DNA of 64,000 nucleotides. Source: Bosea sp. PAMC 26642. Its GTDB lineage: Bacteria > Pseudomonadota > Alphaproteobacteria > Rhizobiales > Beijerinckiaceae. Shown in pieces: positions 51,818 to 64,000 of the stretch. The stretch is from positions 5,301,501-5,365,500 of the forward strand of contig NZ_CP014301.1 of assembly GCF_001562255.1 (NCBI RefSeq), written 5' to 3'. The notes under the pieces were generated by a model. It did not search any database. It was not told the DNA's origin and saw only the letters and a program-made list of their open reading frames with translations. How positions within the stretch are numbered: position 1 is the first letter of the stretch; each line of letters starts with the position of its first letter. The translations under genes were made by a program, and so were the position numbers.

Positions 51818-52615
51818 GTGGCCAGCGAAGGCTTTGCCAGAGACCTGACCGGCAAGACCGCCATCGTGACCGGCGGCAGCCAGGGACTGGGCGAAGCCAT
51901 TGCACGCGAATTCGCGAGCCGAGGCCTCGGCGGCCTGCTGCTGACCGGCCGCAACCGCGAGCGCGGCGAGGCGGTCGCAGCCTCGCTTCGCAGCGCCACC
52001 TGCGACGCCCGCTTCCATGCCGCCGACCTCGCCGATCTCGAATCGGTCCGGGCGATCGTGCCCTTTACGGAAGCGAGCTTTGGCCGCATCGACATTCTCG
52101 TCAACGCCGCAGGCGACACCGACCGAGGCTCGATCTTCGATACCTCGCCGGACCTTTACGAGCGCATCATGGCGGTCAATCTGCGTGCGCCTTTCTTCCT
52201 GATCCAGGATGCAGCCGAAGCGATGCGCCGCCTGTCGATCGAAGGCGCGATCGTCAACATCCAGTCGATGTCGGCCCATGGCGGCCAGCCTTTCCTGTCG
52301 GCCTACAGCGTCTCGAAAGCCGCGCTGGCGGCGCTGACGAAGAACGCGGCCTATGGGCTGCTCGCGCACCGCATCCGCGTCAACGGCCTCAATATCGGCT
52401 GGATGGCGACGCCGGGCGAGGACGCGATCATGCGCAAGCGGCATGGCGCGCAGGATGGCTGGCTCGAAGAGGCCCAAGGCAAGCAGCCCTTCGGACGCCT
52501 GCTCGATCCGCGCGAGGTCGCCAAGGCGGTGGCCTATCTCGCTTCGGCCGAATCCGGCCTGATGACGGGTGCCAATATCGATTTCGACCAGTCGATCCTC
52601 GGAGCACATGACTGA
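51818..52615 (+). CDS. SDR-family oxidoreductase linked to inositol catabolism
   Basis: Classical SDR of 265 residues with a GTG start. The nucleotide loop is TGGSQGLGEAIA, NAAG stabilises the fold, and the catalytic Ser (QSMSAHG) and YSVSK pair are present. It lies just downstream of the RpiR-type palindrome and overlaps the following dehydrogenase gene's earliest possible start. It probably oxidises or epimerises an inositol isomer or related cyclitol so that it can enter the pathway. The exact substrate is not readable. Confidence 0.87.
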   Translation: MASEGFARDLTGKTAIVTGGSQGLGEAIAREFASRGLGGLLLTGRNRERGEAVAASLRSATCDARFHAADLADLESVRAIVPFTEASFGRIDILVNAAGDTDRGSIFDTSPDLYERIMAVNLRAPFFLIQDAAEAMRRLSIEGAIVNIQSMSAHGGQPFLSAYSVSKAALAALTKNAAYGLLAHRIRVNGLNIGWMATPGEDAIMRKRHGAQDGWLEEAQGKQPFGRLLDPREVAKAVAYLASAESGLMTGANIDFDQSILGAHD

Positions 52616-52661
52616 TGCCGAGGCTCTCTTTTCGACCATGACGACAGGACAGAAGACGACG

Positions 52662-53660
52662 ATGCGATTTGGATTGCTGGGCGCCGGGCGGATCGGCCGG
52701 ATTCACGGGATGAACGTCGCCGCGCGCGCCGATTCTACTCTGGTTGCGGTGGCCGACGCCTCTCAGGAGGCCGCAGCCTCGCTGGCGGCCGCCACGGGCG
52801 CGAAGGTTGCGACCGCTGAGGCCATCCTGGCCGACGCCTCGATCGACGCCGTCCTGATCTGCACGCCGACCGACACCCATGCCGACCTGATCGAGGCCGC
52901 CGTCTCGGCCGGAAAGGCGGTCTTCTGCGAAAAACCGGTCGATCTCGACGCCGGCCGCATCCGCCGCTGCCTCGCCATCGTGGAGACATCCGGCAAGCCG
53001 CTGATGATCGGCTTCAACCGCCGCTTCGATCCGAATTTCGCCGCCCTTGAAAGCCGCCTGCGGGCGGGCGAGGCCGGCGCGATCGAGATCGTCAGCGTGA
53101 TCTCGCGCGATCCCTCGCCGCCGCCGGTCGAATACGTTGCGCGCTCCGGCGGGCTCTTCCGCGACATGATGATCCATGATTTCGACATGGCCCGTTTCCT
53201 TCTGGCCGAGGAGCCGATCGAGGTTTTCGCGCTGGGTTCGGCCCTGGTCGATCCGGCGATCGGCGAAGCCGGCGACGTCGACACCGCAGCGGTGCTGATG
53301 AAGACGGCATCGGGCCGGATCGCCCAGATCTCGAATTCGCGCCGCGCGACGTATGGCTACGACCAGCGCATCGAGGTCCACGGCTCGAAGGGCATGCTGC
53401 GCGCCGGCAACATCCACGAGACCACGGTCGAGAGCGCGACGGGGCAGGGCTTCCGCGCCGATCCGGTGCAGAACTTCTTCCTCGAGCGCTATGCCGCCGC
53501 CTATCGCGCCGAACTCGACGCCTTCGTCACGGCTTGCACAGGGGGCAAGGCGCCGACGCCCTCGGGCCGAGATGGCCTCAGGGCCCAGATCCTCGCCGAT
53601 GCGGCCACCGAGTCCTTCCGAACGGGCAAGCCCGTCGCCGTCGCGCTGGAGACGATCTGA
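52662..53660 (+). CDS. Gfo/Idh/MocA-family dehydrogenase, inositol 2-dehydrogenase-like
   Basis: NAD-dependent oxidoreductase that would oxidise myo-inositol or scyllo-inositol to the keto form. The Rossmann start is RFGLLGAGRIGRIHGMN, followed by CTPTDTHADLI, the EKPVDLD motif with the catalytic Lys, and DMMIHDFDMARFL with the catalytic Asp and His. This set is typical of IolG/Idh. In-frame ATGs at 52608 and 52638 are possible, but AGGAC and the conserved N-terminus favour 52662. It is the second gene of the plus-strand iol operon, ahead of an inositol-phosphatase-like gene. Confidence 0.9.
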   Translation: MRFGLLGAGRIGRIHGMNVAARADSTLVAVADASQEAAASLAAATGAKVATAEAILADASIDAVLICTPTDTHADLIEAAVSAGKAVFCEKPVDLDAGRIRRCLAIVETSGKPLMIGFNRRFDPNFAALESRLRAGEAGAIEIVSVISRDPSPPPVEYVARSGGLFRDMMIHDFDMARFLLAEEPIEVFALGSALVDPAIGEAGDVDTAAVLMKTASGRIAQISNSRRATYGYDQRIEVHGSKGMLRAGNIHETTVESATGQGFRADPVQNFFLERYAAAYRAELDAFVTACTGGKAPTPSGRDGLRAQILADAATESFRTGKPVAVALETI

Positions 53661-53662
53661 CC

Positions 53663-54445
53663 ATGACCCCGGCCGAACTCGACCTGCGCCAATACGCCGT
53701 GCTCGGCCTCGTCGCCGAGGCAAGCGTCATGGCGTTCGACTATTTCAACAAGCGCGACAGCCTCGGCATCACGATGAAGGGCGCGCAGGACTGGCTGACC
53801 GTCGCCGACGGCGCGGTGGAGGAGTTCCTGCGCCAGCGGCTCTCCGTGCTGTTCCCGGCCGATGCCGTGATCGGCGAGGAGGGCGGCGGCGAGGCCTCAG
53901 ACGCGGTCTGGATCATCGACCCGATCGATGGCACCTCGAATTTCGCCCGCGGCGACCGCAACTGGTGCATCTCGATCGGCTTCCTGTTGAAAGGCGTGCC
54001 CGAGATCGGCATCATCGCGGCGCCCGCGCTCGACGAGGTCTATGTCGGCCGGCGCGGCCGGGGCGCGACCATGAACGGCCAGCCGATCCGGGTGTCGGGC
54101 GGCAGCGACATCACCCGCGCCTATGTCGAACTCGGCTGGTCGACGCGCATTCCGGCCGCGAATTACCTCGCCACGATCGAACGCGGCTATGCGGCGGGCG
54201 CCTCGATCAAGCGATCGGGCTCGGGCGCGCTCGGCATCTGCCATGTCGCCAATGGACGTACCGACGGCTATGGCGAACTCCACATCAACGCCTGGGACGT
54301 GGCGGCGGGCATCGTCATCGCCTCTGAGGCCGGTGCGGCGGTCAATGATTTTTTTGCTGGCGACGGGATCAGGACCGGCAATCCGATCCTGTGCTGTACG
54401 CCCGGTCTTGCCGAGGACCTCAGGGCGATCACGGGGATTTTTTAA
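53663..54445 (+). CDS. Inositol monophosphatase family protein
   Basis: Mg-dependent phosphatase of 260 residues. Metal motifs are GEEGGGE (Glu), IIDPIDGTSNF (two Asp and the Thr), and NAWDVAAGIVI (Asp). It would hydrolyse inositol-1-phosphate or a similar sugar phosphate. The ATG is 2 bases after the dehydrogenase stop, so it is co-transcribed with it. The link to inositol genes supports a role in producing free inositol, though members of the family also act on other phosphorylated compounds. Confidence 0.9.
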   Translation: MTPAELDLRQYAVLGLVAEASVMAFDYFNKRDSLGITMKGAQDWLTVADGAVEEFLRQRLSVLFPADAVIGEEGGGEASDAVWIIDPIDGTSNFARGDRNWCISIGFLLKGVPEIGIIAAPALDEVYVGRRGRGATMNGQPIRVSGGSDITRAYVELGWSTRIPAANYLATIERGYAAGASIKRSGSGALGICHVANGRTDGYGELHINAWDVAAGIVIASEAGAAVNDFFAGDGIRTGNPILCCTPGLAEDLRAITGIF

Positions 54446-55053
54446 CCGGCACGATAAAAGTCGATCTTTGCATCGACTGGATCGAACTTCGTGAATTCTC
54501 CTCTGCCAGCAGCGTCGCTTCTGATGCCCGCGCCGCAACCGGGCGGATGACGCCACGCGTAGAACGTGGCCTGCAAGTTCATCGATCGCTTGCGCTTTCA
54601 GGCTCGGCTGCCGGAACACGCGGTGGATACGATCGTTGTGCTGCTGGGGGGCAACCGGGAGGTCGCCATGCGAGACGGTCAGGGAAACAAGCTTTCGTCG
54701 GACGAAGTCGACAAGATCAGGTCGCCCCAGGCTGCGGTGAGCGACATGTCGGTCAAGCTTACATCGATCCGCGTCCCGAGAAGGCCGAGCCTGTCCGCGA
54801 GAAAGATGCCAAGCGGGAGTTCGAGACGGATCCAAAGCCTGTATTCTAGGCGTGCTTGCCAGCATGCGCGCCGGCCAAAGTCGCTCAGCCGGCAAGCCCG
54901 GCGCTTTCAGCTTCAGTCTTGTGGCACGCATCCTTTCGCGCAGCTCTATTGGAACAGTCACCAGTGGCGAGCGGTGCTTTGACCTGACTTGAGATGGGCT
55001 GACGAGTTCGTTCATTCTTGACATCTGGGTGAAGCACACCTCATCCTGACTCT
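54446..55053. other. Long intergenic region upstream of the TPP riboswitch, no supported gene
   Basis: About 600 bases with no ORF that I can assign. A plus-strand open frame at 54566-54982 and overlapping minus-strand frames exist, but they show no recognisable family and no good ribosome sites. This would fit degraded sequence or an old insertion. The promoter of the riboswitch operon should lie near its right end. TTCTTGACA at about 55015-55023 resembles a -35 box, but I see no clear -10. Confidence 0.4.
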
Positions 55054-55166
55054 GTTCCCAGGGGGGCCTCGCTAGGAGGCTGAGATTCCGCCGGCCCGGA
55101 CGCTGTCCGGACAACGCGGTGACCCTCCGAACCTGATCCGGTTCATACCGGCGTAGGGATGCGGGA
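55054..55166 (+). ncRNA. TPP riboswitch (THI element)
   Basis: Thiamine-pyrophosphate-sensing leader RNA. All conserved blocks of the aptamer are present in order: GGGGGGCC, GGCTGAGA at 55078-55085, ACCCTCCGAACCTGATCCGG around 55131-55150, and CGGCGTAGGGA at 55149-55159. The extra hairpin CCGGAC-GCT-GTCCGG at 55095-55109 is the usual variable arm. The P1 strands are at about 55054-55059 and 55162-55166. It lies about 90 bases upstream of the LuxE-like gene on the same strand, so it governs that operon. When TPP is abundant, expression should fall. Confidence 0.95.
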
Positions 55167-55170
55167 CATC

Positions 55171-55199
55171 GGGCGTTGCGACGCCCCATTTCCATCTTT
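55171..55199 (+). promoter_or_regulatory. Expression-platform hairpin of the TPP riboswitch (terminator-like)
   Basis: GGGCGT and ACGCCC form six pairs around TGCG, followed by CATTTCCATCTTTG, which is T-rich but interrupted. This could be a weak intrinsic terminator or a ribosome-access switch. It starts just after the aptamer, so it is placed to respond to TPP binding. Confidence 0.5.
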
Positions 55200-55255
55200 G
55201 CGCGGGTTGGTGGACCGACCGCTGTCGTTCGGCCTCGTCGGGGCTGCGGCGGCGC

Positions 55256-56356
55256 ATGTGCGAAGGTGGACTGACGGCCGTGACCGAAGCGACGATCATC
55301 GAGGCCTTGCTGGCGTTCCTGCAACGGCAGGATACCACGGAAGAGGATTTCGACCGGCTGGCGCTGTCGGTCTTCGCCTACCAGTTCGAGCATAACCAGC
55401 CCTATCGCCGGTTCGCGATCCAGCGGGGCCGGACCACGCTGACTGTCCGGCACTGGCGCGACATCCCGGCCGTCCCGATCACCGCCTTCAAGGATTTGAC
55501 ACTGAGCTGCAGGCCGGCGAACGACATCCCGCATGTCTTCATGACCAGCGGCACCACCAGGGCCGTCAGGGGCCGCAGCTATCACCCGACGCTTGCGGTC
55601 TACGACCTCTCGATGATCCTGAATTTCCGGCAGCGCTTCATGCGGGGGCAGGAGCGCATCCGCATGGGCATCCTGTTTCCCGACGAAGTGGCGATGCCGA
55701 ATTCGTCCCTGGCGCATTATCTGGCGCTGGCGCTGCGCGAGTTCGGAATGCCTGACAGCGCCGTCATGATCGGCGACGCCGGCCTCGATATGGACCGGCT
55801 TATGGCGGCCCTGGCTCAGGCGGAAGCCTCCGGCGAACCCTATGCCCTGCTCGGCGCGAGCTACAGTTTCGTGCATCTGATCGACGAGTTGCGCCGTCAG
55901 GGACGCAGCTTTCGTCTCCCGGACGGCAGCCGCATCCTCGATACCGGCGGCTTCAAGGGCCAGTCGCGCGAGGTCGGCGCCGACGATTTCTATGACTCCC
56001 TTTCGGAGACGCTCGGCGTGCCGCGTAGCCTGTGCATCAACATGTACGGCATGACCGAGCTCAGCACCCAGTTCTACGACAGCGGCAACGAGGCCTGCCC
56101 GCCGGTGAAATCGGGACCGCACTGGATCCGCAGCCGGGTGGTCGATCCGCTCACGGGGCAGGACGTGGCGGAGGGCGCGACCGGCGTCCTGGTGCATCAC
56201 GACCTCGCCCATTTCAATTCGGTGTCCGCGATCCTCACGGAAGATGCCGGCGTCGTCGTGCCGGGCGGCTTCCAACTTCTCGGCCGCGTCGATGGCGCCG
56301 ATTCGAAAGGCTGTTCCCTTGCGGTCGAGGAATTCCTCAGGGCCGCGCGGGGCTAG
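55256..56356 (+). CDS. luxE: LuxE-like acyl-protein synthetase
   Basis: Activates a carboxylic acid with ATP to an acyl-adenylate and passes the acyl group through a cysteine to the LuxC-type reductase. The adenylation loop VFMTSGTTRAVRGR is near residue 97, matching the TSGTTG-type motif. The acyl-accepting cysteine is in SKGCSLAVEEF, Cys353, which is 13 residues from the C-terminus as in LuxE. The fold between agrees (NMYGMTELS). The GTG at 55280, preceded by AAGGTGG, is an alternative start. It is the first gene under the TPP riboswitch and is followed by luxC after 3 bases. The substrate here is not expected to be a long fatty acid. Confidence 0.88.
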   Translation: MCEGGLTAVTEATIIEALLAFLQRQDTTEEDFDRLALSVFAYQFEHNQPYRRFAIQRGRTTLTVRHWRDIPAVPITAFKDLTLSCRPANDIPHVFMTSGTTRAVRGRSYHPTLAVYDLSMILNFRQRFMRGQERIRMGILFPDEVAMPNSSLAHYLALALREFGMPDSAVMIGDAGLDMDRLMAALAQAEASGEPYALLGASYSFVHLIDELRRQGRSFRLPDGSRILDTGGFKGQSREVGADDFYDSLSETLGVPRSLCINMYGMTELSTQFYDSGNEACPPVKSGPHWIRSRVVDPLTGQDVAEGATGVLVHHDLAHFNSVSAILTEDAGVVVPGGFQLLGRVDGADSKGCSLAVEEFLRAARG

Positions 56357-56359
56357 GCG

Positions 56360-57808
56360 GTGAACGAGGTCGCAGGCCATCTGCCGGGGCTCTCAGTGGG
56401 CGACGTGGCCTGGCGGACGCTGAGCTTCGGCGCGCGGGGCGAGAGCGTGGATGTCAGCGTGCCGATGCTGACGCCCGAACAGGGCGAGGCACTCGCCGCG
56501 CGCATCCGCGCCAATGCGCGCGCCTATCTCGCGACACTAAGCGTCACCCAGATCGTCGCCGTCATCGACGAGGCGATCGCGCAGCTGCTCGATCGCGCCC
56601 ACCCCCTGCGCCGCAAGGCCGAACGGCTGTTGCCGATCGTCACCGGATACGATCCCGAGATGGTCCGGCTCGGACTGACCGGCTACCTGAAGACCTTCCG
56701 CCAGCCTCAGCTTAAGCGCTTCTTGGCGGAGGATTTCGCCGATCCGCCGATCCTCGACGAATTCCAGCCGCGCCCCAAGGGTGGCTTCGCGAAGGCCTAC
56801 GGACCCGAACTCCTGCTGCATGTCTGGGCCGGCAATGTGCCCGGCCTGCCGCTGTGGAGCCTGATCTCCGGCCTGCTGGTCAAGGCCGGAACCATCGGCA
56901 AGCTGCCCAGCGCCGAGCCGCTGATGGCCGGCTGGTTCGCAAAGCTGCTGGCCGAGATCGACCCCAGGCTGGGCGAGTGCCTCGCCGTGATCTGGTGGAA
57001 GGGCGGCGACGAGGCTCAGGAGCGCGCATGGTTCGCGCAAGCCGACGTGATCGTTGCCTATGGCGGGAACGACGCGCTCTCTGCGATGCGAGAGCGCGTG
57101 CCCGTCACGACGCGCTTCCTGCCGCACGGACACAAGATCGGCTTCGGCCTAGTCTCGCGGACGGCCCTCGACACGCGCAAGGCCGGAGAGCTGGCGCGCC
57201 GCGCCGCCCATGACGTGATGAGCTACGATCAGCAGGGCTGCTATTCGCCCCAGATGCTGTTCGTCGAACGCGGGGGCCGCGTTTCGCCACGCGAGTTTGC
57301 GGCCTATGTCGCGCATGAGCTGGCCAGCATCTCGCGAAAGCATCCCCGCGGCCCACTGTCGATCGCGGAGGCAAGTGGCGTCGCGTTATGGCGAAATGCA
57401 GAGGAACTTCGCGTGCTCGCCGGCGCCCGCGAACTGCTTGGCGATCCGGCCGACGACTGGGCCGTGGTTTGCGTCGACGGGCCTGAAGCCCTGTCGCCAA
57501 GTGCTCTCGGCCGCACGATCAAGATTGTCGCGGTCGATACCCTGGCCGAGGCCGTTGCGCTGGTCGCGCCGCATCGCCGCTTTCTGCAGACCGCCGGCGT
57601 GGCCGCCGCCCCCGAAGAGCTCTTCCACCTCGCGAACCTGCTGGGACAGGCCGGGGTCACCCGCATTGCGGCGTTCGGCGCTATGACCTCGCCGGAGGCC
57701 GGCTGGCATCACGACGGTCGCTTCAACCTGCTCGACCTCGTTACCATGACGGAGATTGAGCAGTCCGCCGAGGCGGCGGCCGAGGGATTTGCCCCTTATG
57801 TCGATTGA
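56360..57808 (+). CDS. luxC: LuxC-like acyl reductase (NADPH-dependent, aldehyde-forming)
   Basis: Reduces an acyl group carried as a thioester to the aldehyde. A 482-residue member of the aldehyde-dehydrogenase-like LuxC family with a GTG start. The catalytic cysteine is Cys294 in YDQQGCYSPQMLFVE, which matches the LuxC active-site segment. The cofactor and fold regions HVWAGNVPGLPLWSL and VIVAYGGNDALSAMRE are present. It ends inside the start of the ABC ATPase gene (11-base overlap). With LuxE it forms a complete carboxylate reductase. No luxA or luxB is nearby, so it is not a luminescence system. Confidence 0.9.
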   Translation: MNEVAGHLPGLSVGDVAWRTLSFGARGESVDVSVPMLTPEQGEALAARIRANARAYLATLSVTQIVAVIDEAIAQLLDRAHPLRRKAERLLPIVTGYDPEMVRLGLTGYLKTFRQPQLKRFLAEDFADPPILDEFQPRPKGGFAKAYGPELLLHVWAGNVPGLPLWSLISGLLVKAGTIGKLPSAEPLMAGWFAKLLAEIDPRLGECLAVIWWKGGDEAQERAWFAQADVIVAYGGNDALSAMRERVPVTTRFLPHGHKIGFGLVSRTALDTRKAGELARRAAHDVMSYDQQGCYSPQMLFVERGGRVSPREFAAYVAHELASISRKHPRGPLSIAEASGVALWRNAEELRVLAGARELLGDPADDWAVVCVDGPEALSPSALGRTIKIVAVDTLAEAVALVAPHRRFLQTAGVAAAPEELFHLANLLGQAGVTRIAAFGAMTSPEAGWHHDGRFNLLDLVTMTEIEQSAEAAAEGFAPYVD

Positions 57809-58559
57809 AGCCTCGGAGAGCTTCGTCGCGATCGAGCGAGTCAGCTTCTCGCATGGAGCGGAGCCCGCAACGGTCGATGGCGTCGATTGGACGATCCCCC
57901 GCGGCGCCGTCCATTGTCTGGTCGGGCGCAGTGGTTGCGGCAAGACGACCCTGCTGAAGCTCGCTGCCGGGCTGCTCCTGCCCGACGAGGGCGACGTGCG
58001 TATCGACGGCCTCGTCCTGCGTGGCCCGGGCCCCCGCATCGGCTTCGTCTTCCAGTCATCGACCCTGCTTGATTGGCTTACCGTACTCGACAACGTCCTG
58101 CTGCCGATCTCGCTGAAACGACGGCTGCGCCCGCAAGACCATGACAAGGCGTTAGACCTGCTGGCGCGCGTTTCGCTGGAGGGTCTGGCGGCCCGTTACC
58201 CGCACGAGCTGTCCGGCGGGCAGCAGAGCCGCGTGGCGGTCGCGCGCGCGCTCGTCGCCGATCCAGCCCTGCTGCTGCTCGACGAGCCCTTCGCCGCGCT
58301 CGATGCGCTGACCCGCGAGGAGTTGCAGGACGACCTGCTCGCGCTCTGCGCCGAGCACAGCATGACCGCGCTTTTCGTCACGCACGACATTGCGGAGGCG
58401 GTCTATCTTGGCGATCGCGTCGCCGTCATGGCGGCCGGGCGGCTCCACCATCAGCTGACGATCGACCTGCCCCGCCCGCGCGGACGCGATCTGCGCTACG
58501 GCCAGCCCTTCAACGCGCTCTGCCGGGAGTTGCGGCAGGCGATGGACGCAGCAGCATGA
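57798..58559 (+). CDS. ABC transporter ATP-binding protein (ThiZ/SsuB/TauB-like)
   Basis: ATPase of a nitrate/sulfonate/thiamine-precursor type importer, 253 residues. Walker A GRSGCGKTT is at about 43-51, the signature is LSGGQQSRVAVARAL, Walker B is ALLLLDEPFAALD, and the switch His is in VTHDIAEAV. The ATG at 57798 overlaps the LuxC gene by 11 bases, and its end overlaps the permease gene (ATGA). Riboswitch control and a binding protein of the NMT1/ThiY class make ThiZ the best parallel. Confidence 0.9.
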   Translation: MSIEASESFVAIERVSFSHGAEPATVDGVDWTIPRGAVHCLVGRSGCGKTTLLKLAAGLLLPDEGDVRIDGLVLRGPGPRIGFVFQSSTLLDWLTVLDNVLLPISLKRRLRPQDHDKALDLLARVSLEGLAARYPHELSGGQQSRVAVARALVADPALLLLDEPFAALDALTREELQDDLLALCAEHSMTALFVTHDIAEAVYLGDRVAVMAAGRLHHQLTIDLPRPRGRDLRYGQPFNALCRELRQAMDAAA

Positions 58560-59311
58560 TCGCCCGGCTCTGCTCTGCCCTTCTCTTGCTCGCCCTGCTC
58601 GGTGGCTGGGAACTCTATTGCCGCCTCGCGGGCGTGCCCTCCCTGATCGTCCCGACGCCATCGAGCGTGCTGGCGACGCTATGGTCGGAGATCGCCAGCG
58701 GGCGGCTCTGGCCGCATCTGCGCATCACCGCGACCGAGATGACGCTCGGGCTGGCGCTCGGCTGCGCGATCGGGCTGCTCGCCGGGATCGTACTCGCCGA
58801 GGTCGCTGTCCTGCGCCGCCTGCTTCATCCCTACATCGTCGCGAGCCAGGTCGTGCCCAAGCTCGCGCTCGGGCCGCTCTTCATCATCTGGTTCGGCTTC
58901 GGCATGACCTCGACCGTCGTGATTACGGCGCTGATCTGCTTCTTTCCCCTGATGGAAAACATCGTCACCGGGCTCGCCCAAACCGACCCGGCGCGGCGCG
59001 AACTGTTCCGGATGCTCGGCGCCACGCGCTTTCAGACGCTCTGGCGCCTCAAGCTGCCGAGCGCGCTGCCGGTCATTCTGGCAGGGCTTCGCGTGGCCGT
59101 CGTCCTCGCGCTGGTCGGCGCGGTCGTCGGCGAATTCATCGGCGGCCGGGCGGGGCTGGGAGCCTCGATTATCGCGGCCCAGAGCGTGATGGATTCGAGC
59201 CTGATGTTTGCGCTCTTCATCGTGATCACCCTGCTGGGAATGTCGTTCTATCAAGCCGCACTCGCCCTCGAAGGCGTGCTGTTGCGCCATCATCTGAAAG
59301 GCTCGTCATGA
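58556..59311 (+). CDS. ABC transporter permease (ThiX/SsuC/TauC-like)
   Basis: Inner-membrane permease of 251 residues with about six hydrophobic segments. The ATPase-contact loop reads FRMLGATRFQTLWRLKLPSALP, and GGRAGLGASIIAAQSVMD near the end is typical of the SsuC/TauC/ThiX group. It is coupled on both sides: ATGA with the ATPase gene before and ATGA with the binding-protein gene after. The set probably imports a small aromatic or heterocyclic thiamine precursor, as argued from the riboswitch. Confidence 0.9.
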   Translation: MIARLCSALLLLALLGGWELYCRLAGVPSLIVPTPSSVLATLWSEIASGRLWPHLRITATEMTLGLALGCAIGLLAGIVLAEVAVLRRLLHPYIVASQVVPKLALGPLFIIWFGFGMTSTVVITALICFFPLMENIVTGLAQTDPARRELFRMLGATRFQTLWRLKLPSALPVILAGLRVAVVLALVGAVVGEFIGGRAGLGASIIAAQSVMDSSLMFALFIVITLLGMSFYQAALALEGVLLRHHLKGSS

Positions 59312-60303
59312 CCGCATCCTATCGTCGTCGCACCCTGTTCGCATTGGCCCTCGCCGGCCTGGCCGGAGCGGCCAGCCTCGTGTCCGCATCGGCGCAGACG
59401 CTCGACAAGGTGACCGTCGCGGGCTGGAGCCAGCCGATCAGCGAGATCACGAATCTGCTGGCCGAGCCCGACAAGGGCTTCTTCAAAAAGCAGGGCATCG
59501 CGCTGGACTATGTGCCCGGAACGGGCGGCGGCTCCGCCATCCAGACCATGTTGACGGGCAAGGCCGACATCGCCTTCACCGACCCGGCCGCCTTCTACCT
59601 CGCGCTCGACAAGGGCGAGAAGCTGGTCGCGATCTACAACATCTATCCGCAGAACGTCTTCAACGTGGTCGCGCCGAAATCCAAGGGCATCAGGGGCCCG
59701 GCCGACCTCAAGGGCAAGCGGATCGGCGTCTATAGCCTGTCGAGCGGCACGCGCCAGAACCTGCAGGTGCTGCTCAACCAGGTCGGCCTGACCGAGGCCG
59801 ACGTGACGATCGAGGTCACCGGCCTGCTGAACTTCGCCCCGCTGATCCAGGGCCAGGTCGACGCCACGGCCGCCACCGATACAGGCCTCCTCGTCGGCCG
59901 CATGAAGGGCCTGCCCGAGGTCGACGTGATCGAGGTCAAGGACCATCTCAATCTGCCCAGCGACATCTTCGTCGTCACCCAGGCGACCTATGAGGCGAAG
60001 AAGGATGTGCTGAAGCGCTTCCTCGCCGCCTATCGCGACAGCGCCGCCTGGATGATCGCCGAGCCGCAGGCCGCCGCCAAGATCGCCGTCGAGCGCGCCA
60101 TTAACGGCCGCGACGAGGCCCTCAACCTCGAAATCATCAAGCTGCGCAATCTCTCGAGCGTATCCGCCACCACCGCGAGCAAGGGCCTCGGCCATTTCGA
60201 CGACCATGTCATGCAGCAGGGAGCCGACGCCTTCGCCAAGCTCGGCCTGATCGCAAGGCCGCTCGACATGGCACAGGTCGTCAAGACCGACCTGATCCCA
60301 TAA
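59308..60303 (+). CDS. ABC transporter solute-binding protein, NMT1/ThiY-like
   Basis: Periplasmic receptor with a signal peptide containing YRRRTLFALALAGLAG (Tat or Sec) and cleavage near SASAQT. The mature part belongs to the SsuA/THI5-NMT1-like fold: LDKVTVAGWSQPISEITNLLAEPDKGFFKKQGI, YVPGTGGGSAIQTMLTGKADIAFTDPAAF and the hinge GKRIGVYSLSSGTRQNLQVLL. ThiY proteins of this fold bind formylaminopyrimidine, a thiamine breakdown product. The receptor may instead prefer a carboxylated derivative here. Length 331 is normal. Confidence 0.88.
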   Translation: MTASYRRRTLFALALAGLAGAASLVSASAQTLDKVTVAGWSQPISEITNLLAEPDKGFFKKQGIALDYVPGTGGGSAIQTMLTGKADIAFTDPAAFYLALDKGEKLVAIYNIYPQNVFNVVAPKSKGIRGPADLKGKRIGVYSLSSGTRQNLQVLLNQVGLTEADVTIEVTGLLNFAPLIQGQVDATAATDTGLLVGRMKGLPEVDVIEVKDHLNLPSDIFVVTQATYEAKKDVLKRFLAAYRDSAAWMIAEPQAAAKIAVERAINGRDEALNLEIIKLRNLSSVSATTASKGLGHFDDHVMQQGADAFAKLGLIARPLDMAQVVKTDLIP

Positions 60304-60317
60304 GGCGAACTGGCATC

Positions 60318-61085
60318 ATGAAGTTCAGGGACAGATCCGTCCTGGTCACGGGCGCAAGCCGGGGCATCGGCGCTGCAATCGCAAAGGCCTTCGCAGCCGA
60401 GGGCGCCTTCGTGGTCGTCAACTACCTGCGCAACGAGGCCGCAGCCAACGAGGTGGTCGAGGCTTGCGGGGCTCTCGGCGGGCAGGCGCTGGCCGTGGCG
60501 GCCGATGTGACCTCCGAAGCTCAGGTCGGCGTGATGATGGCGCGCATCGGCGACGAGATCGGCCGGCTCGACGCCGTCGTGAACAACGCCTTCGCGCCCT
60601 ATGTCTTCGATCCCGACGATCGCCAGCGCTTCTGGGAAACGCCATGGTCGGCCTATCAGACCCAGATCGACGGTTCGGTGAAGGCCGCCTACACAATCTG
60701 CCAGGCCGCATTGCCGCTGATGCGCAGGCGCAGCCGCGGCAGCATCGTCAACCTCGCCAGCGATCTCGTGGCGCGCCCCTCGATTCCCTATCACGACTAC
60801 ACCACGGCAAAGGCCGCGCTGATCGGCTTCAGCCGCACGCTCGCAGCCGAACTCGGCCCGCTCGGCATCAGGGTCAACTGCGTGGCGCCGGGGCTGGTCT
60901 ATCCGACCGATGCGAGCCGCTCGACCCGCGAGGACGTCCGTGCCGCCCTGATCGCGCAGACGCCGCTGCGGCGCATCGCGACGGTGGAGGACATTGCTGG
61001 GCCGGTGCTATTCCTCGCCTCCGACTGGAGCGAATTCATGACCGGCCAGACTTTGCATGTCGACGGTGGGCTGGTCATGGCTTGA
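60318..61085 (+). CDS. Short-chain dehydrogenase/reductase at the end of the riboswitch operon
   Basis: NAD(P)-dependent oxidoreductase of 255 residues. The nucleotide loop is TGASRGIGAAIA, the NNAF segment replaces the usual NNAG, and the catalytic Ser (NLASD) and YTTAK pair are in place. It lies 14 bases after the binding-protein gene and is probably the last gene of the operon. In the proposed pathway it would reduce the aldehyde made by LuxC to an alcohol; the opposite direction or an unrelated step cannot be excluded. Confidence 0.85.
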   Translation: MKFRDRSVLVTGASRGIGAAIAKAFAAEGAFVVVNYLRNEAAANEVVEACGALGGQALAVAADVTSEAQVGVMMARIGDEIGRLDAVVNNAFAPYVFDPDDRQRFWETPWSAYQTQIDGSVKAAYTICQAALPLMRRRSRGSIVNLASDLVARPSIPYHDYTTAKAALIGFSRTLAAELGPLGIRVNCVAPGLVYPTDASRSTREDVRAALIAQTPLRRIATVEDIAGPVLFLASDWSEFMTGQTLHVDGGLVMA

Positions 61086-61187
61086 CGCAACAACGCGAAT
61101 GCCGAGGGTCGACTCAACCCAGCATAGCACGAGGTGTGATTTCGCGTGTCGGCACGAAGATACCACCAATGTGACGACCGGAGGTAC

Positions 61188-61730
61188 TCAGCGTATCGGG
61201 ATGTTAGTTTCCGGCCGGCCGATTGGCGCGGTCTGCACAGCTATCGACGCCCCGCCCTGGCATTTCTCTGCCGCTGCCAGGAGGATCGAGAGCGCGATCA
61301 CTTCCGCGGCGAGCCTGACATCCCCCAGCGAAGCGAAGCTGGGCGCAATGCGGATGTTGCTGTCTTGAGGATCGCGGCCGTAGGGCCAGGTCGAACCGGC
61401 GACCGTGAGCATGACGCCCGCCTCGTCGGCCAGGCCCACAGCGCGGCGTGCCGTGCCCGGCAGGGTTTCGACATTGATGAAATAACCACCCTGAGGGGCC
61501 GACCAGGTGGCGGCGCCCGTGCCTGTCAGGCGACGCGACAGGCCGTCCTGGACAGCTGTGAACTTCGGGACAAGGAGCGCCCGATGCTTTTCCATATGCT
61601 TCCGCAGCCCTCCCGCATTCTGGAGGAAGCGGACATGGCGAAGCTGGTTGAGCTTGTCGGGTCCAACGCCGCGCTTGCTGTTGCGCGCCATATACCAGGC
61701 GACGTTAGCCGGAGACGATGCGCTCGGGCC
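61188..61730 (-). pseudogene. C-terminal remnant of a class I/II aminotransferase
   Basis: The minus-strand sequence reads as the last third of a PLP-dependent aminotransferase: SPANVAWYMARNSKRGVGPDKLNQLRHVRFL, GGYFINVETLPGTARRAVGLADEAGVMLTVAG and NIRIAPSFASLGDVRLAAEVIALSI. The large N-terminal part, including the Schiff-base lysine region, is missing. The frame is open for some distance before its first Met (61691), but the homology stops at about 61730. The C-terminal end may also be altered. It is a truncated, non-functional gene within a decay zone after the riboswitch operon. Confidence 0.72.
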
Positions 61731-61996: not shown

Positions 61997-62119
61997 CGAG
62001 ATTGCGTTAGTTCACCTCAACACTCGGACGTATTGCCACGGGAAAGGGCTCGGTCCAAACACGATCGATTGGCGACCGCGTGCTTCGGAACTGCGTCGTC
62101 AAACTGGTTGATCAATTTT
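61997..62119. other. Non-coding stretch before the IclR gene
   Basis: No ORF of note. Together with 61731-61795 it forms the rest of the decay zone between the aminotransferase remnant and the IclR promoter. A/T content rises toward 62100-62160, as expected for a promoter region. Confidence 0.4.
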
Positions 62120-62134
62120 ATTCTGCTAGACAGA
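62120..62134. promoter_or_regulatory. Probable IclR operator upstream of its own gene
   Basis: TTCTG and CAGAA form a perfect inverted repeat around CTAGA; a further half copy TTCTGTTTCG follows at 62140. IclR proteins commonly regulate themselves from short A/T-rich palindromes just upstream of the start. Confidence 0.45.
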
Positions 62135-62169
62135 ACCGATTTTCTGTTTCGATAATATTTGGAGGTGCC

Positions 62170-62934
62170 ATGGTTGTTAAGAACCGATCGAGCCATGAGG
62201 AAGGGCGCGGCGACATGGCCTCCGAACCCGGCTCCGACGCGAAAGCGTTGGGCGTTGCCTCCGTTCAACGCGCCCTCAATATTCTGACGGCATTTCAGGT
62301 CAACGATAGCGGTTTGACCCTGGCCGAGTTATCGCGGCGCACGGGGTACTATAAAAGTACCCTATTGCGCTTGCTTGCGACGCTTCAGGACCATCGCTTC
62401 GTGTCAAAGCTTCCGGATGGAAGGTATACGCTCGGATCCATTGTTTTCTACCTCGGGCAAGTGTACGATCAGTCGCTTAATCTTCGCGCGGTGATCGAGC
62501 CCGTCCTCAAGGATCTCGCCAAGGAAACCGATGAAGACGCCATGTTCGAGATCAGGGAGAACGATAGCCGTCTCGTGCTCCTGCGGTCCGATGGCCAGCA
62601 ACGTGTCCGGGAGCATGTCATGGTCGGCACGCTGTTGCCGCTGGACGTTGGGGCTCCGGGACATGTGTTGACCCGGTTTGCGAACGGGCCCGGGCGGCAT
62701 ACTGGAGAGGACCTTATTATCGACAGCTTTGGCGAGCGGGATCCGGAGATCGCCGGCGTTGCAGCACCGGTTTTCGGGCCCGGCAGCCGATTGATCGGAT
62801 CGCTCTGTGTGACCGGTACGATCACGCGGTTTCACAACAAAGAGCATTTGCGGGCCATTCGCGCTGCCGTGATGCGGGCTGCACGCCAGCTTACGTCCTC
62901 TCTGGGGGGTGAGGCGCGCTCGATCTTCCCTTAA
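62170..62934 (+). CDS. IclR-family transcriptional regulator
   Basis: N-terminal winged helix-turn-helix (SVQRALNILTAFQVNDSGLTLAELSRRTGYYKSTLLRLLATL) followed by the IclR effector-binding domain with GAPGHVLTRFA and the later VAAPVFGPGSRLIGSLCVTGTI. It has 254 residues. The ATG at 62170 has a perfect GGAGGT ribosome site at 62161-62166. Codon use and base composition look less GC-biased than in the neighbouring genes. It is probably the regulator of an aromatic or acid catabolic gene nearby, the only candidate in view being the pcaC-like gene. Confidence 0.9.
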   Translation: MVVKNRSSHEEGRGDMASEPGSDAKALGVASVQRALNILTAFQVNDSGLTLAELSRRTGYYKSTLLRLLATLQDHRFVSKLPDGRYTLGSIVFYLGQVYDQSLNLRAVIEPVLKDLAKETDEDAMFEIRENDSRLVLLRSDGQQRVREHVMVGTLLPLDVGAPGHVLTRFANGPGRHTGEDLIIDSFGERDPEIAGVAAPVFGPGSRLIGSLCVTGTITRFHNKEHLRAIRAAVMRAARQLTSSLGGEARSIFP

Positions 62935-63302: not shown

Positions 63303-63698
63303 CTACTTCTCGGCGGGGATGGCGCCTTCGGCCTTTAGCACCTCATGGGCCGCCTTGAAGGCGTCGAGACCTGCCGGGATGCCGGAATAGACCGTGGCCT
63401 GAAGCAGGATTTCCTTGATCTCGTCCACCGTCACGCCGTTTGCGAGAGCGCCCTTGACGTGAAGCTTCAGCTCGACCGGCTTGCTGAGCGCCGTCAGCAT
63501 CGCGAGGTTCAGCATGGATCGGGTCTTGAGATCGATGCCCGGCCGCGTCCAGGCATAACCCCAACACCATTCCGTCGTGATTTCCTGGAACGCCATCATG
63601 AAGTCGTCAGCCTTGGCGAGGCTGCCGTCCACATAATCGGCGCCGAGCACCTGGCGGCGGACTTTCAAGCCCTTCTCGAACTGTTCGCTACGGGACAT
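63303..63698 (-). CDS. pcaC: 4-carboxymuconolactone decarboxylase family protein
   Basis: An all-helical AhpD-like protein of 131 residues. The N-terminus FEKGLKVRRQVLGADYVD and the core EWCWGYAWTRPGIDLKTRSMLNLAMLTAL, with the ending GIPAGLDAFKAAHEVL, match the PcaC-type gamma-carboxymuconolactone decarboxylase. That enzyme acts in the protocatechuate branch of the beta-ketoadipate pathway. The ATG at 63698 is chosen since earlier codons show no homology. Other pca genes are not in the window. Proteins of this group also occur in other catabolic clusters, so the substrate is not certain. Confidence 0.82.
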   Translation of the reverse strand: MSRSEQFEKGLKVRRQVLGADYVDGSLAKADDFMMAFQEITTEWCWGYAWTRPGIDLKTRSMLNLAMLTALSKPVELKLHVKGALANGVTVDEIKEILLQATVYSGIPAGLDAFKAAHEVLKAEGAIPAEK

Positions 63699-64000
63699 GG
63701 CAAAACCCTTTTCATCGGTTGCGGAGAACAGGAAGGGGTACCGGCTACAGGCCGGGATGGAACTGCAAACAGCATCGTTGTCGGGAGGACCGTGCTCGCG
63801 GCGGCGAGTACGGTGCGGTCGGATTCCCGTCCCAGCCCGTCGGCGGCCTTGCGCCAGCGGTTCGCGCAAACGCGGGAATATTTCGCCGGCACCCATTCTT
63901 GTTCATCTCACCCCCTATCGCTTTGTCGCATCGCGCCCTCTGTGGAGCGCTTCCCGATCGCGGCTGATCGTCGTCGGACTATCGACCTCCTAGACTTATC
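63699..64000. other. End of window, no supported gene
   Basis: About 300 bases upstream of the pcaC-like gene. Open frames exist on both strands but none has recognisable content. This should be the promoter region of the pcaC-like gene unless it is led by an upstream gene beyond the edge. Confidence 0.35.

What the first reader, a model, noticed from the sequence alone, without database searches (positions are those of the whole stretch)
55054..61085. TPP riboswitch controlling a LuxE-LuxC carboxylate reductase with a ThiXYZ-like importer and an SDR: candidate new thiamine-salvage system
Seen: a complete TPP aptamer followed by six genes coupled by overlaps or tiny gaps (luxE-like, luxC-like, ABC ATPase, permease, NMT1/ThiY-like receptor, SDR). 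Known: TPP riboswitches control thiamine synthesis, salvage and uptake genes, LuxE and LuxC together reduce acids to aldehydes, and ThiY-type receptors bind pyrimidine breakdown products. Inference: the operon imports a carboxylated relative of a thiamine moiety and reduces it acid to aldehyde to alcohol. Candidates are 4-amino-2-methylpyrimidine-5-carboxylate (to HMP), 4-methylthiazole-5-acetate (to the hydroxyethylthiazole) or thiamine acetic acid, all known thiamine catabolites. I know of no description of such a LuxCE-based route.
Basis: partly seen in the sequence, partly recalled or inferred. Interest (0 to 1): 0.95.

Follow-up and report, generated by a model that had tools for sequence, protein, structure and literature searches.

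The report
TPP-switched LuxE-LuxC thiamine-salvage operon
This gene cluster, switched by a vitamin B1-sensing RNA and found in distantly related bacteria, looks like an undescribed way to rescue an oxidised fragment of vitamin B1 by importing it and reducing its acid group back to the alcohol used to build the vitamin.

Summary
A TPP aptamer (RF00059, 66.1 bits) precedes luxE-luxC-ABC ATPase-permease-receptor-SDR. It is a conserved system: I examined 102 related loci from Alpha-, Beta- and Gammaproteobacteria and Bacilli, including Lactobacillus plasmids. LuxC is in 102 and the SDR in 96 (the other six contigs end early). A TPP element heads the operon in 100.

The importer is exchangeable: ABC in 81 loci, a nucleobase (NCS2) permease in 5, neither in 12 uncut loci. 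In 8 loci thiamine genes adjoin (thiD, thiM, ThiW, thiC, tenI-thiO-thiG-thiF).

The parts
55050..55177 (+). TPP riboswitch aptamer (RF00059)
   Evidence: cmscan 66.1 bits, E 9.2e-11, model 1-105 of 105
55280..56356 (+). LuxE-like ATP-dependent acyl-activating/acyl-protein ligase; ORF open from ATG 55256, GTG 55280 is the likelier start
   Evidence: PF04443 71.9 bits; Cys345 (numbered from 55280) in 93 of 93 aligned rows; aligned with LuxE of 7xc6 through the KGCSL motif; 358-aa database copy
56360..57808 (+). LuxC-like NAD(P)H-dependent acyl reductase
   Evidence: PF05893 304 bits; Cys294 in 102 of 102 aligned rows; only PDB sequence relative at E 0.1 is 7xc6 LuxC
57798..58559 (+). ABC transporter ATPase
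   Evidence: PF00005 110.6 bits; start
58556..59311 (+). ABC transporter permease
   Evidence: PF00528 101.2 bits
59308..60303 (+). NMT1/THI5-like periplasmic receptor (ThiY-like fold)
60318..61085 (+). Short-chain dehydrogenase/reductase, proposed aldehyde-to-alcohol reductase
   Evidence: PF13561 212.3 bits; Y161 and K165 in 97 of 97 aligned rows

Best explanation
The operon is a thiamine-pyrimidine salvage module. When TPP is low the riboswitch allows expression. The ThiY-like ABC importer takes up an oxidised (carboxylated) thiamine pyrimidine, most likely 4-amino-2-methylpyrimidine-5-carboxylate. LuxE activates the carboxylate with ATP and passes it as a thioester to the LuxC cysteine. 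LuxC reduces it with NAD(P)H to the aldehyde, and the SDR reduces the aldehyde to HMP, which ThiD and ThiE then use. Shown here: the riboswitch match, the gene order, the conservation across classes, the intact catalytic residues, the ThiY-like receptor fold, and ThiD in each of the 49 carriers tested. Inferred: riboswitch function, the direction of catalysis, and the identity of substrate and product.
For: 1) A TPP element heads the operon in 100 of 102 loci, and LuxE-LuxC-SDR is the constant core. A switch that opens at low TPP argues for making, not degrading, a thiamine part. 2) thiD is the gene directly before luxE in two Burkholderiales loci (L083, gap 9 nt; L126). In L107 the module ends a tenI-thiO-thiG-thiF operon. 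ThiM or ThiW partners occur in L082, L084, L088 and L108. Most of these partners supply the thiazole half, leaving the pyrimidine half to the module. 3) Receptor model: ThiY first, thiamin receptor second. 4) The replacement importer is an NCS2 nucleobase permease in 5 loci; an NCS1 nucleobase transporter is implicated in HMP transport (PMC5874261, abstract read). 5) ThiD in 49 of 49, ThiM in 25 of 49, TPK in 7 of 49. ThiM is not enriched: 9 of 19 carriers of the host's order against 137 of 297 genomes of the order. 6) The acid is a reported thiamine metabolite (title of reference 144 in PMC7780320).
Against: ThiC is present in 57 of 59 carrier genomes, so most do not depend on pyrimidine salvage. 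The window's own host has thiC, thiM and thiD but no ThiG or Thi4 match, so it should need thiazole. Neobacillus niacini (L084) has ThiC and ThiM but only weak ThiG hits. L108 has thiM as the gene after the SDR, and ThiW, usually taken as a thiazole carrier (recalled), sits in three loci. In L062 the neighbour is thiC, a pyrimidine gene. 94 of 102 loci show no thiamine gene in the flank held. One locus (L056) has no TPP element. The receptor is only 18% identical to ThiY; its best NCBIfam match is the SsuA sulfonate family, below cut-off (103.9 of 163.5), and SsuA structures tie with Thi5. The SDR's nearest PDB and NCBIfam entries are FabG-type 3-oxoacyl-ACP reductases. LuxE and LuxC are related to fatty-acyl enzymes and no small-acid specificity is shown.
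Confidence: 0.6

Rival explanations
1. The module makes the thiazole alcohol HET from 4-methylthiazole-5-acetate; ThiM then phosphorylates it.
For: The host lacks ThiG and Thi4 but has ThiM. N. niacini has only weak ThiG hits and has ThiM. thiM follows the SDR in L108. ThiW sits in L082, L084 and L088.
Against: 24 of 49 carriers lack ThiM and ThiM is not enriched among carriers (9 of 19 against 137 of 297). Receptor and permease families are pyrimidine-type. 47 of 49 carriers have a strong ThiG match.
Confidence: 0.14
2. The module reduces thiamine acetic acid back to thiamine, taken up whole.
Against: Thiamine pyrophosphokinase is found in only 7 of 49 carriers, all Bacilli. Thiamine kinase (ThiK) was not searched, so this is incomplete.
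Confidence: 0.06
3. The module acts on another pyrimidine-type acid or conjugate of the HMP half (for example a further breakdown product), still giving HMP or its aldehyde.
For: Receptor fold and NCS2 permease point to the pyrimidine but not to one compound.
Against: No hydrolase or amidase was recognised among the six operon genes.
Confidence: 0.1
4. The enzymes make a non-thiamine aldehyde or alcohol (for example from fatty or aromatic acids), and TPP control reflects something else.
For: LuxE and LuxC belong to Pfam families named for acyl-protein and acyl-CoA chemistry, their only PDB sequence relative is 7xc6, long-chain acyl enzymes, and the SDR is nearest to FabG-type 3-oxoacyl-ACP reductases.
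Against: TPP elements in 100 of 102 loci, thi genes in some of the same operons, ThiY-like receptor, and scores far below the luminous-enzyme cut-offs (81 of 550 and 91 of 750).
Confidence: 0.06

Closest known systems
ThiXYZ (ThiY) / YlmB / TenA salvage of formylaminopyrimidine (FAMP)
   Same: Import of a thiamine pyrimidine breakdown product by an NMT1-type ABC importer and its conversion to HMP; ThiY is the closest structure to the receptor.
   Different: The chemistry would be ATP-driven reduction of a carboxylate (LuxE, LuxC, SDR) instead of deformylation and deamination (recalled). TenA and YlmB are not among the six operon genes and were not searched elsewhere.
LuxC-LuxE fatty acid reductase of luminous bacteria (PDB 7xc6; origin recalled)
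   Same: Same Pfam families, same pair of conserved cysteines.
   Different: No luxA, luxB or luxD in the operon; far below the NCBIfam equivalog cut-offs; a TPP riboswitch, an importer and an SDR instead.
ThiM/ThiW and cHET thiazole salvage
   Same: TPP-controlled next to the module in two Bacilli loci (L082, L084).
   Different: ThiM phosphorylates an alcohol; no carboxylate reduction is involved (recalled). cHET use is reported in PMC5899164 (abstract read).
Thi5/Thi13 HMP synthase of fungi
   Different: An enzyme making HMP from PLP and histidine (recalled); here the protein lies in an ABC operon.

Membership tests
TPP riboswitch RF00059 | Covariance model score at or above the gathering cut-off | tested here: met
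   66.1 against 54.3 bits
TPP riboswitch RF00059 | TPP-dependent control of the downstream genes | not testable with these tools
   Needs reporter or probing experiments; the simple scan of 54700-61400 gave no terminator-like and no promoter-like site
LuxE (PF04443) | Family profile score above cut-off and conserved C-terminal cysteine | tested here: met
   71.9 against 24.9 bits; Cys345 in 93 of 93 aligned rows, 10 of 102 loci not in the alignment
Luminous LuxE, long-chain-fatty-acid-protein ligase (NF052244) | Equivalog cut-off | tested here: not met
   81.4 against 550 bits
LuxC (PF05893) | Family profile score above cut-off and active-site cysteine | tested here: met
   304 against 21 bits; Cys294 in 102 of 102 aligned rows
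Luminous LuxC (NF052251) | Equivalog cut-off | tested here: not met
   91.3 against 750 bits
Bacterial luciferase (lux) operon | luxA and luxB with luxC, luxD, luxE | tested here: not met
   None among the six operon genes
ThiXYZ-type pyrimidine importer | NMT1/THI5 receptor with one permease and one ATPase | tested here: met
ThiXYZ-type pyrimidine importer | Binding of FAMP, HMP or a related pyrimidine | not testable with these tools
   No ligand data; pocket residues were not compared
TenA/YlmB salvage | TenA and YlmB enzymes in the operon | tested here: not met
   None among the six genes; not searched elsewhere in the genome
HET salvage (ThiM route) | ThiM present in carrier genomes | tested here: not met
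   Absent from 24 of 49 genomes, present in 25, the host included

The most novel reading that the evidence does not exclude
A horizontally spread vitamin-salvage cassette uses LuxE-LuxC-type carboxylate reduction plus an SDR to turn the oxidised, supposedly dead-end thiamine pyrimidine carboxylate back into HMP. This would be a further pyrimidine salvage route beside direct HMP uptake and FAMP/TenA, and to my knowledge the first job found for LuxE-LuxC in vitamin metabolism. Importers are swapped freely (ThiY-like ABC, NCS2, or neither).
Probability: 0.58. Interest if true: 0.9.

Novelty: new variant of a known kind. Interest (0 to 1): 0.85.

Why it matters
It would add a new chemical step to vitamin B1 salvage and make an oxidised B1 breakdown product a usable nutrient. 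It would also give a function to a protein pair now often named long-chain fatty acid-CoA ligase and acyl-CoA reductase in public records. The prediction is directly testable: growth tests of thiC and thiG mutants would decide between the main readings.

Tried and rejected
Chance aptamer: rejected. The regex used for TPP elements (nine mismatches) gave 86 hits in 1.83 Mb of loci and 0 in one set of simulated sequence of the same first-order composition. The looser ten-mismatch form that adds L105 and L110 had no such control.

ThiC replacement: I expected carriers to lack ThiC. They do not: 57 of 59 have it. So rescue of auxotrophs cannot be the general role.

Thi4 explaining the missing ThiG of the host: no Thi4 in 6 of 6 genomes tested.

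Genes near the module: tblastn with twelve queries for nine thi families (ThiC, D, E, F, G, M, O, W, TenI) found them in 8 of 102 loci (L062, L082, L083, L084, L088, L107, L108, L126). The other 94 show none at the score used in the flank held, so the context evidence rests on few loci. TenA was not among the queries.

Literature: ten searches were answered. I saw no paper linking LuxE or LuxC to thiamine metabolism; this is judged from listings, plus passages of PMC3219970 and PMC8814607, where the lux genes are reporters, and of PMC3766115 and PMC2258182. The library lacks most subscription journals. The 2002 survey of thiamin biosynthesis genes by Rodionov et al. was not read. I recall, unchecked, that it names an oxidoreductase oarX under TPP control, which could be this SDR; a search for the name found nothing. 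The gene lists in the supplements of PMC3766115 were not available.

Not tested: ThiK, TenA and YlmB across genomes; pocket residues of the receptor; LuxE-LuxC structure models (one of two prediction jobs used).

In the residue counts my script set no LuxE frame in 10 of 102 loci (L026, L027, L049, L064, L074, L084, L104, L106, L126, L127), no LuxC frame in one and no SDR frame in six. The tree used 75 rows after leaving out near-identical ones. Genome inventories used 49 carriers (50 handles given, L080 not held; 31 of the 80 loci were left out beforehand) plus 10 Bacilli for ThiC only. Completeness is unknown for the named genomes, and some are MAGs (the ThiC miss L057 is one). That the 19 carriers belong to the host's order rests on genus names and recalled taxonomy; the 297 control genomes include the host and one other carrier.
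Full report
Check of the observation. The aptamer scores 66.1 bits against RF00059 (cut-off 54.3), covers the whole model and is the only Rfam match at gathering score in the window. The host genome (5.5 Mb, 2 contigs, 99.99% complete) holds one other TPP element, before thiC. Six genes follow within 6 kb on the same strand: LuxE, LuxC, ABC ATPase, permease, NMT1-type receptor, SDR. luxE and luxC are 3 nt apart, luxC overlaps the ATPase by 11 nt, the ATPase and permease overlap by 4 nt, the permease and receptor by 4 nt, and the SDR follows after 14 nt. LuxE and LuxC belong to their Pfam families but score 81 of 550 and 91 of 750 bits on the NCBIfam models of the luminous enzymes, so they are relatives and not members of that system.

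The system is conserved. The LuxE search listed the best 120 of 2535 relatives; besides the host's own copy they are 68-81% identical, with names such as Bosea, Methylobacterium, Azospirillum, Pantoea, Serratia and Enterobacter. In these 102 loci LuxC is present in 102 and the SDR in 96; the six misses lie on contigs that end early. ABC receptor plus permease are present in 81, an NCS2-type permease in 5, and neither in 16, of which four are cut contigs. Nine of the other twelve are Enterobacterales; two Enterobacterales loci (L019, L020) do have the ABC genes.

TPP elements. A pattern search allowing nine mismatches finds one within 2.6 kb upstream of luxE in 80 of 102 loci. Rfam at the gathering score was positive in 18 of 33 scanned loci. 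Of the 15 without such a match, 11 gave a match below the gathering score when scanned again, L056 gave none, L083 and L065 are positive by pattern only, and L044 begins at the contig edge. In all, 12 of 13 loci scanned with an E-value threshold were positive at 42-54 bits. The union is 97. L105 and L110 match with ten mismatches, and L107 has the element, with no mismatch, at the head of its longer thi operon. So 100 of 102 loci have one; many are close relatives of each other.

Thiamine genes beside the module. L083 and L126 (Burkholderiales) read TPP-thiD-luxE-luxC-ABC-SDR, with thiO, thiG and a weak thiE match after it. L107 reads TPP-tenI-thiO-thiG-thiF-luxE-luxC-ABC-SDR (thiO there by a 26% match only). 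L108 ends with thiM. L082 and L084 have TPP-thiM-thiD-thiE and then TPP-ThiW-luxE-luxC-ABC-SDR. L088 has two TPP elements, then ThiW-NCS2-luxE-luxC-SDR. L062 has TPP-thiC and then TPP-luxE. These eight of 102 loci mostly pair the module with the thiazole half of the pathway and with ThiD; L062 pairs it with thiC.

Spread. The LuxE tree (75 rows) puts six Enterobacterales rows inside the alphaproteobacterial group, next to the window (set of seven, 100/94; the program warns of long branches among Bacilli rows). The module also sits on 10 kb and 21 kb plasmids of Lactiplantibacillus and Levilactobacillus and on Pantoea and Priestia plasmids. It is rare within groups. In the host's order 3 of 297 genomes match at E <= 0.001, the third being a 31% relative of unknown role. 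In the class Bacilli 11 of 398 match at E <= 1e-40, the centre included. In Burkholderiales 8 of 399 match, the centre included.

Catalytic residues. LuxE Cys345 is conserved in 93 of 93 aligned rows and lies in a KGCSL motif shared with LuxE of 7xc6; LuxC Cys294 is conserved in 102 of 102; the SDR Tyr161 and Lys165 in 97 of 97 (rows dropped are told under Tried and rejected). The proposed acyl-thioester chemistry is therefore possible. The SDR's nearest families are FabG-type 3-oxoacyl-ACP reductases (NF006393, 287.6 against a cut-off of 292; PDB list), which says little about its substrate.

What can be used. In 49 carrier genomes: ThiD 49, ThiC 48, ThiG 47 with strong matches, ThiM 25, thiamine pyrophosphokinase 7. 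HMP is the product that every one of them could use. HET would be a dead end in 24. ThiM is no commoner in carriers of the host's order (9 of 19) than in the order at large (137 of 297). Ten further Bacilli carriers have ThiC in 9. Against this, the host has thiC and thiM but no ThiG or Thi4, and N. niacini has no strong ThiG match, so for these two a thiazole source would be more useful.

Mechanism. I take the module as an acid-to-alcohol converter for the pyrimidine half of thiamine. TPP control argues against a degradative direction. [quoted passage not shown] passages read). Reduction through acyl-adenylate, LuxE thioester, LuxC thioester and aldehyde follows established LuxE-LuxC chemistry (recalled). 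The SDR step to the alcohol is inferred from its constant presence.

Novelty. Ten answered full-text searches in an open-access library listed no paper on such a route. Known pyrimidine salvage uses ThiY-type import and TenA (passages in PMC10881298 and PMC10470507). The kind of system is known; the enzymes and the chemistry appear new.

Mended against the calls: residue counts and dropped rows, the size of the receptor's lead, the number of thi families searched, and the results against the reading.

Noticed in passing
L128:3665-6980 (host genome): The host's second TPP switch precedes thiC, a divergent thiM and a thiE-like frame (the last read by eye), while no ThiG or Thi4 is found: the host looks like a thiazole auxotroph.
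   Followed up: partly
L088:5718-6014: Two TPP aptamers in tandem (85.0 and 72.9 bits) before ThiW-NCS2-luxE-luxC-SDR on a Niallia megaplasmid.
   Followed up: no
L086:1390-6321 and L090:2947-7878: The same TPP-NCS2-luxE-luxC-SDR cassette with shared protein accessions on two different plasmids, of 10 kb (Lactiplantibacillus) and 21 kb (Levilactobacillus), both from food.
   Followed up: partly
L062:7624-9916: thiC with its own TPP switch lies directly before a second TPP switch and the luxE operon.
   Followed up: no
L005 (G274): A distant LuxE relative (31% identity) in the same order has no TPP motif by the pattern search in the 3.9 kb held: LuxE relatives with other roles may exist.
   Followed up: no
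L102 (G643) and L094 (G426): The genome search reports stop codons inside the LuxE match (1 TAG and 2 TAA; 1 TGA), yet open frames of 355 and 369 aa were found there. Not resolved.
   Followed up: no
window 52569-54445: Gfo/Idh/MocA oxidoreductase and inositol monophosphatase-family genes just upstream on the same strand, apparently unrelated.
   Followed up: no
window 62080-62934 and 63303-63896: IclR-type regulator and a carboxymuconolactone decarboxylase-family gene downstream.
   Followed up: no
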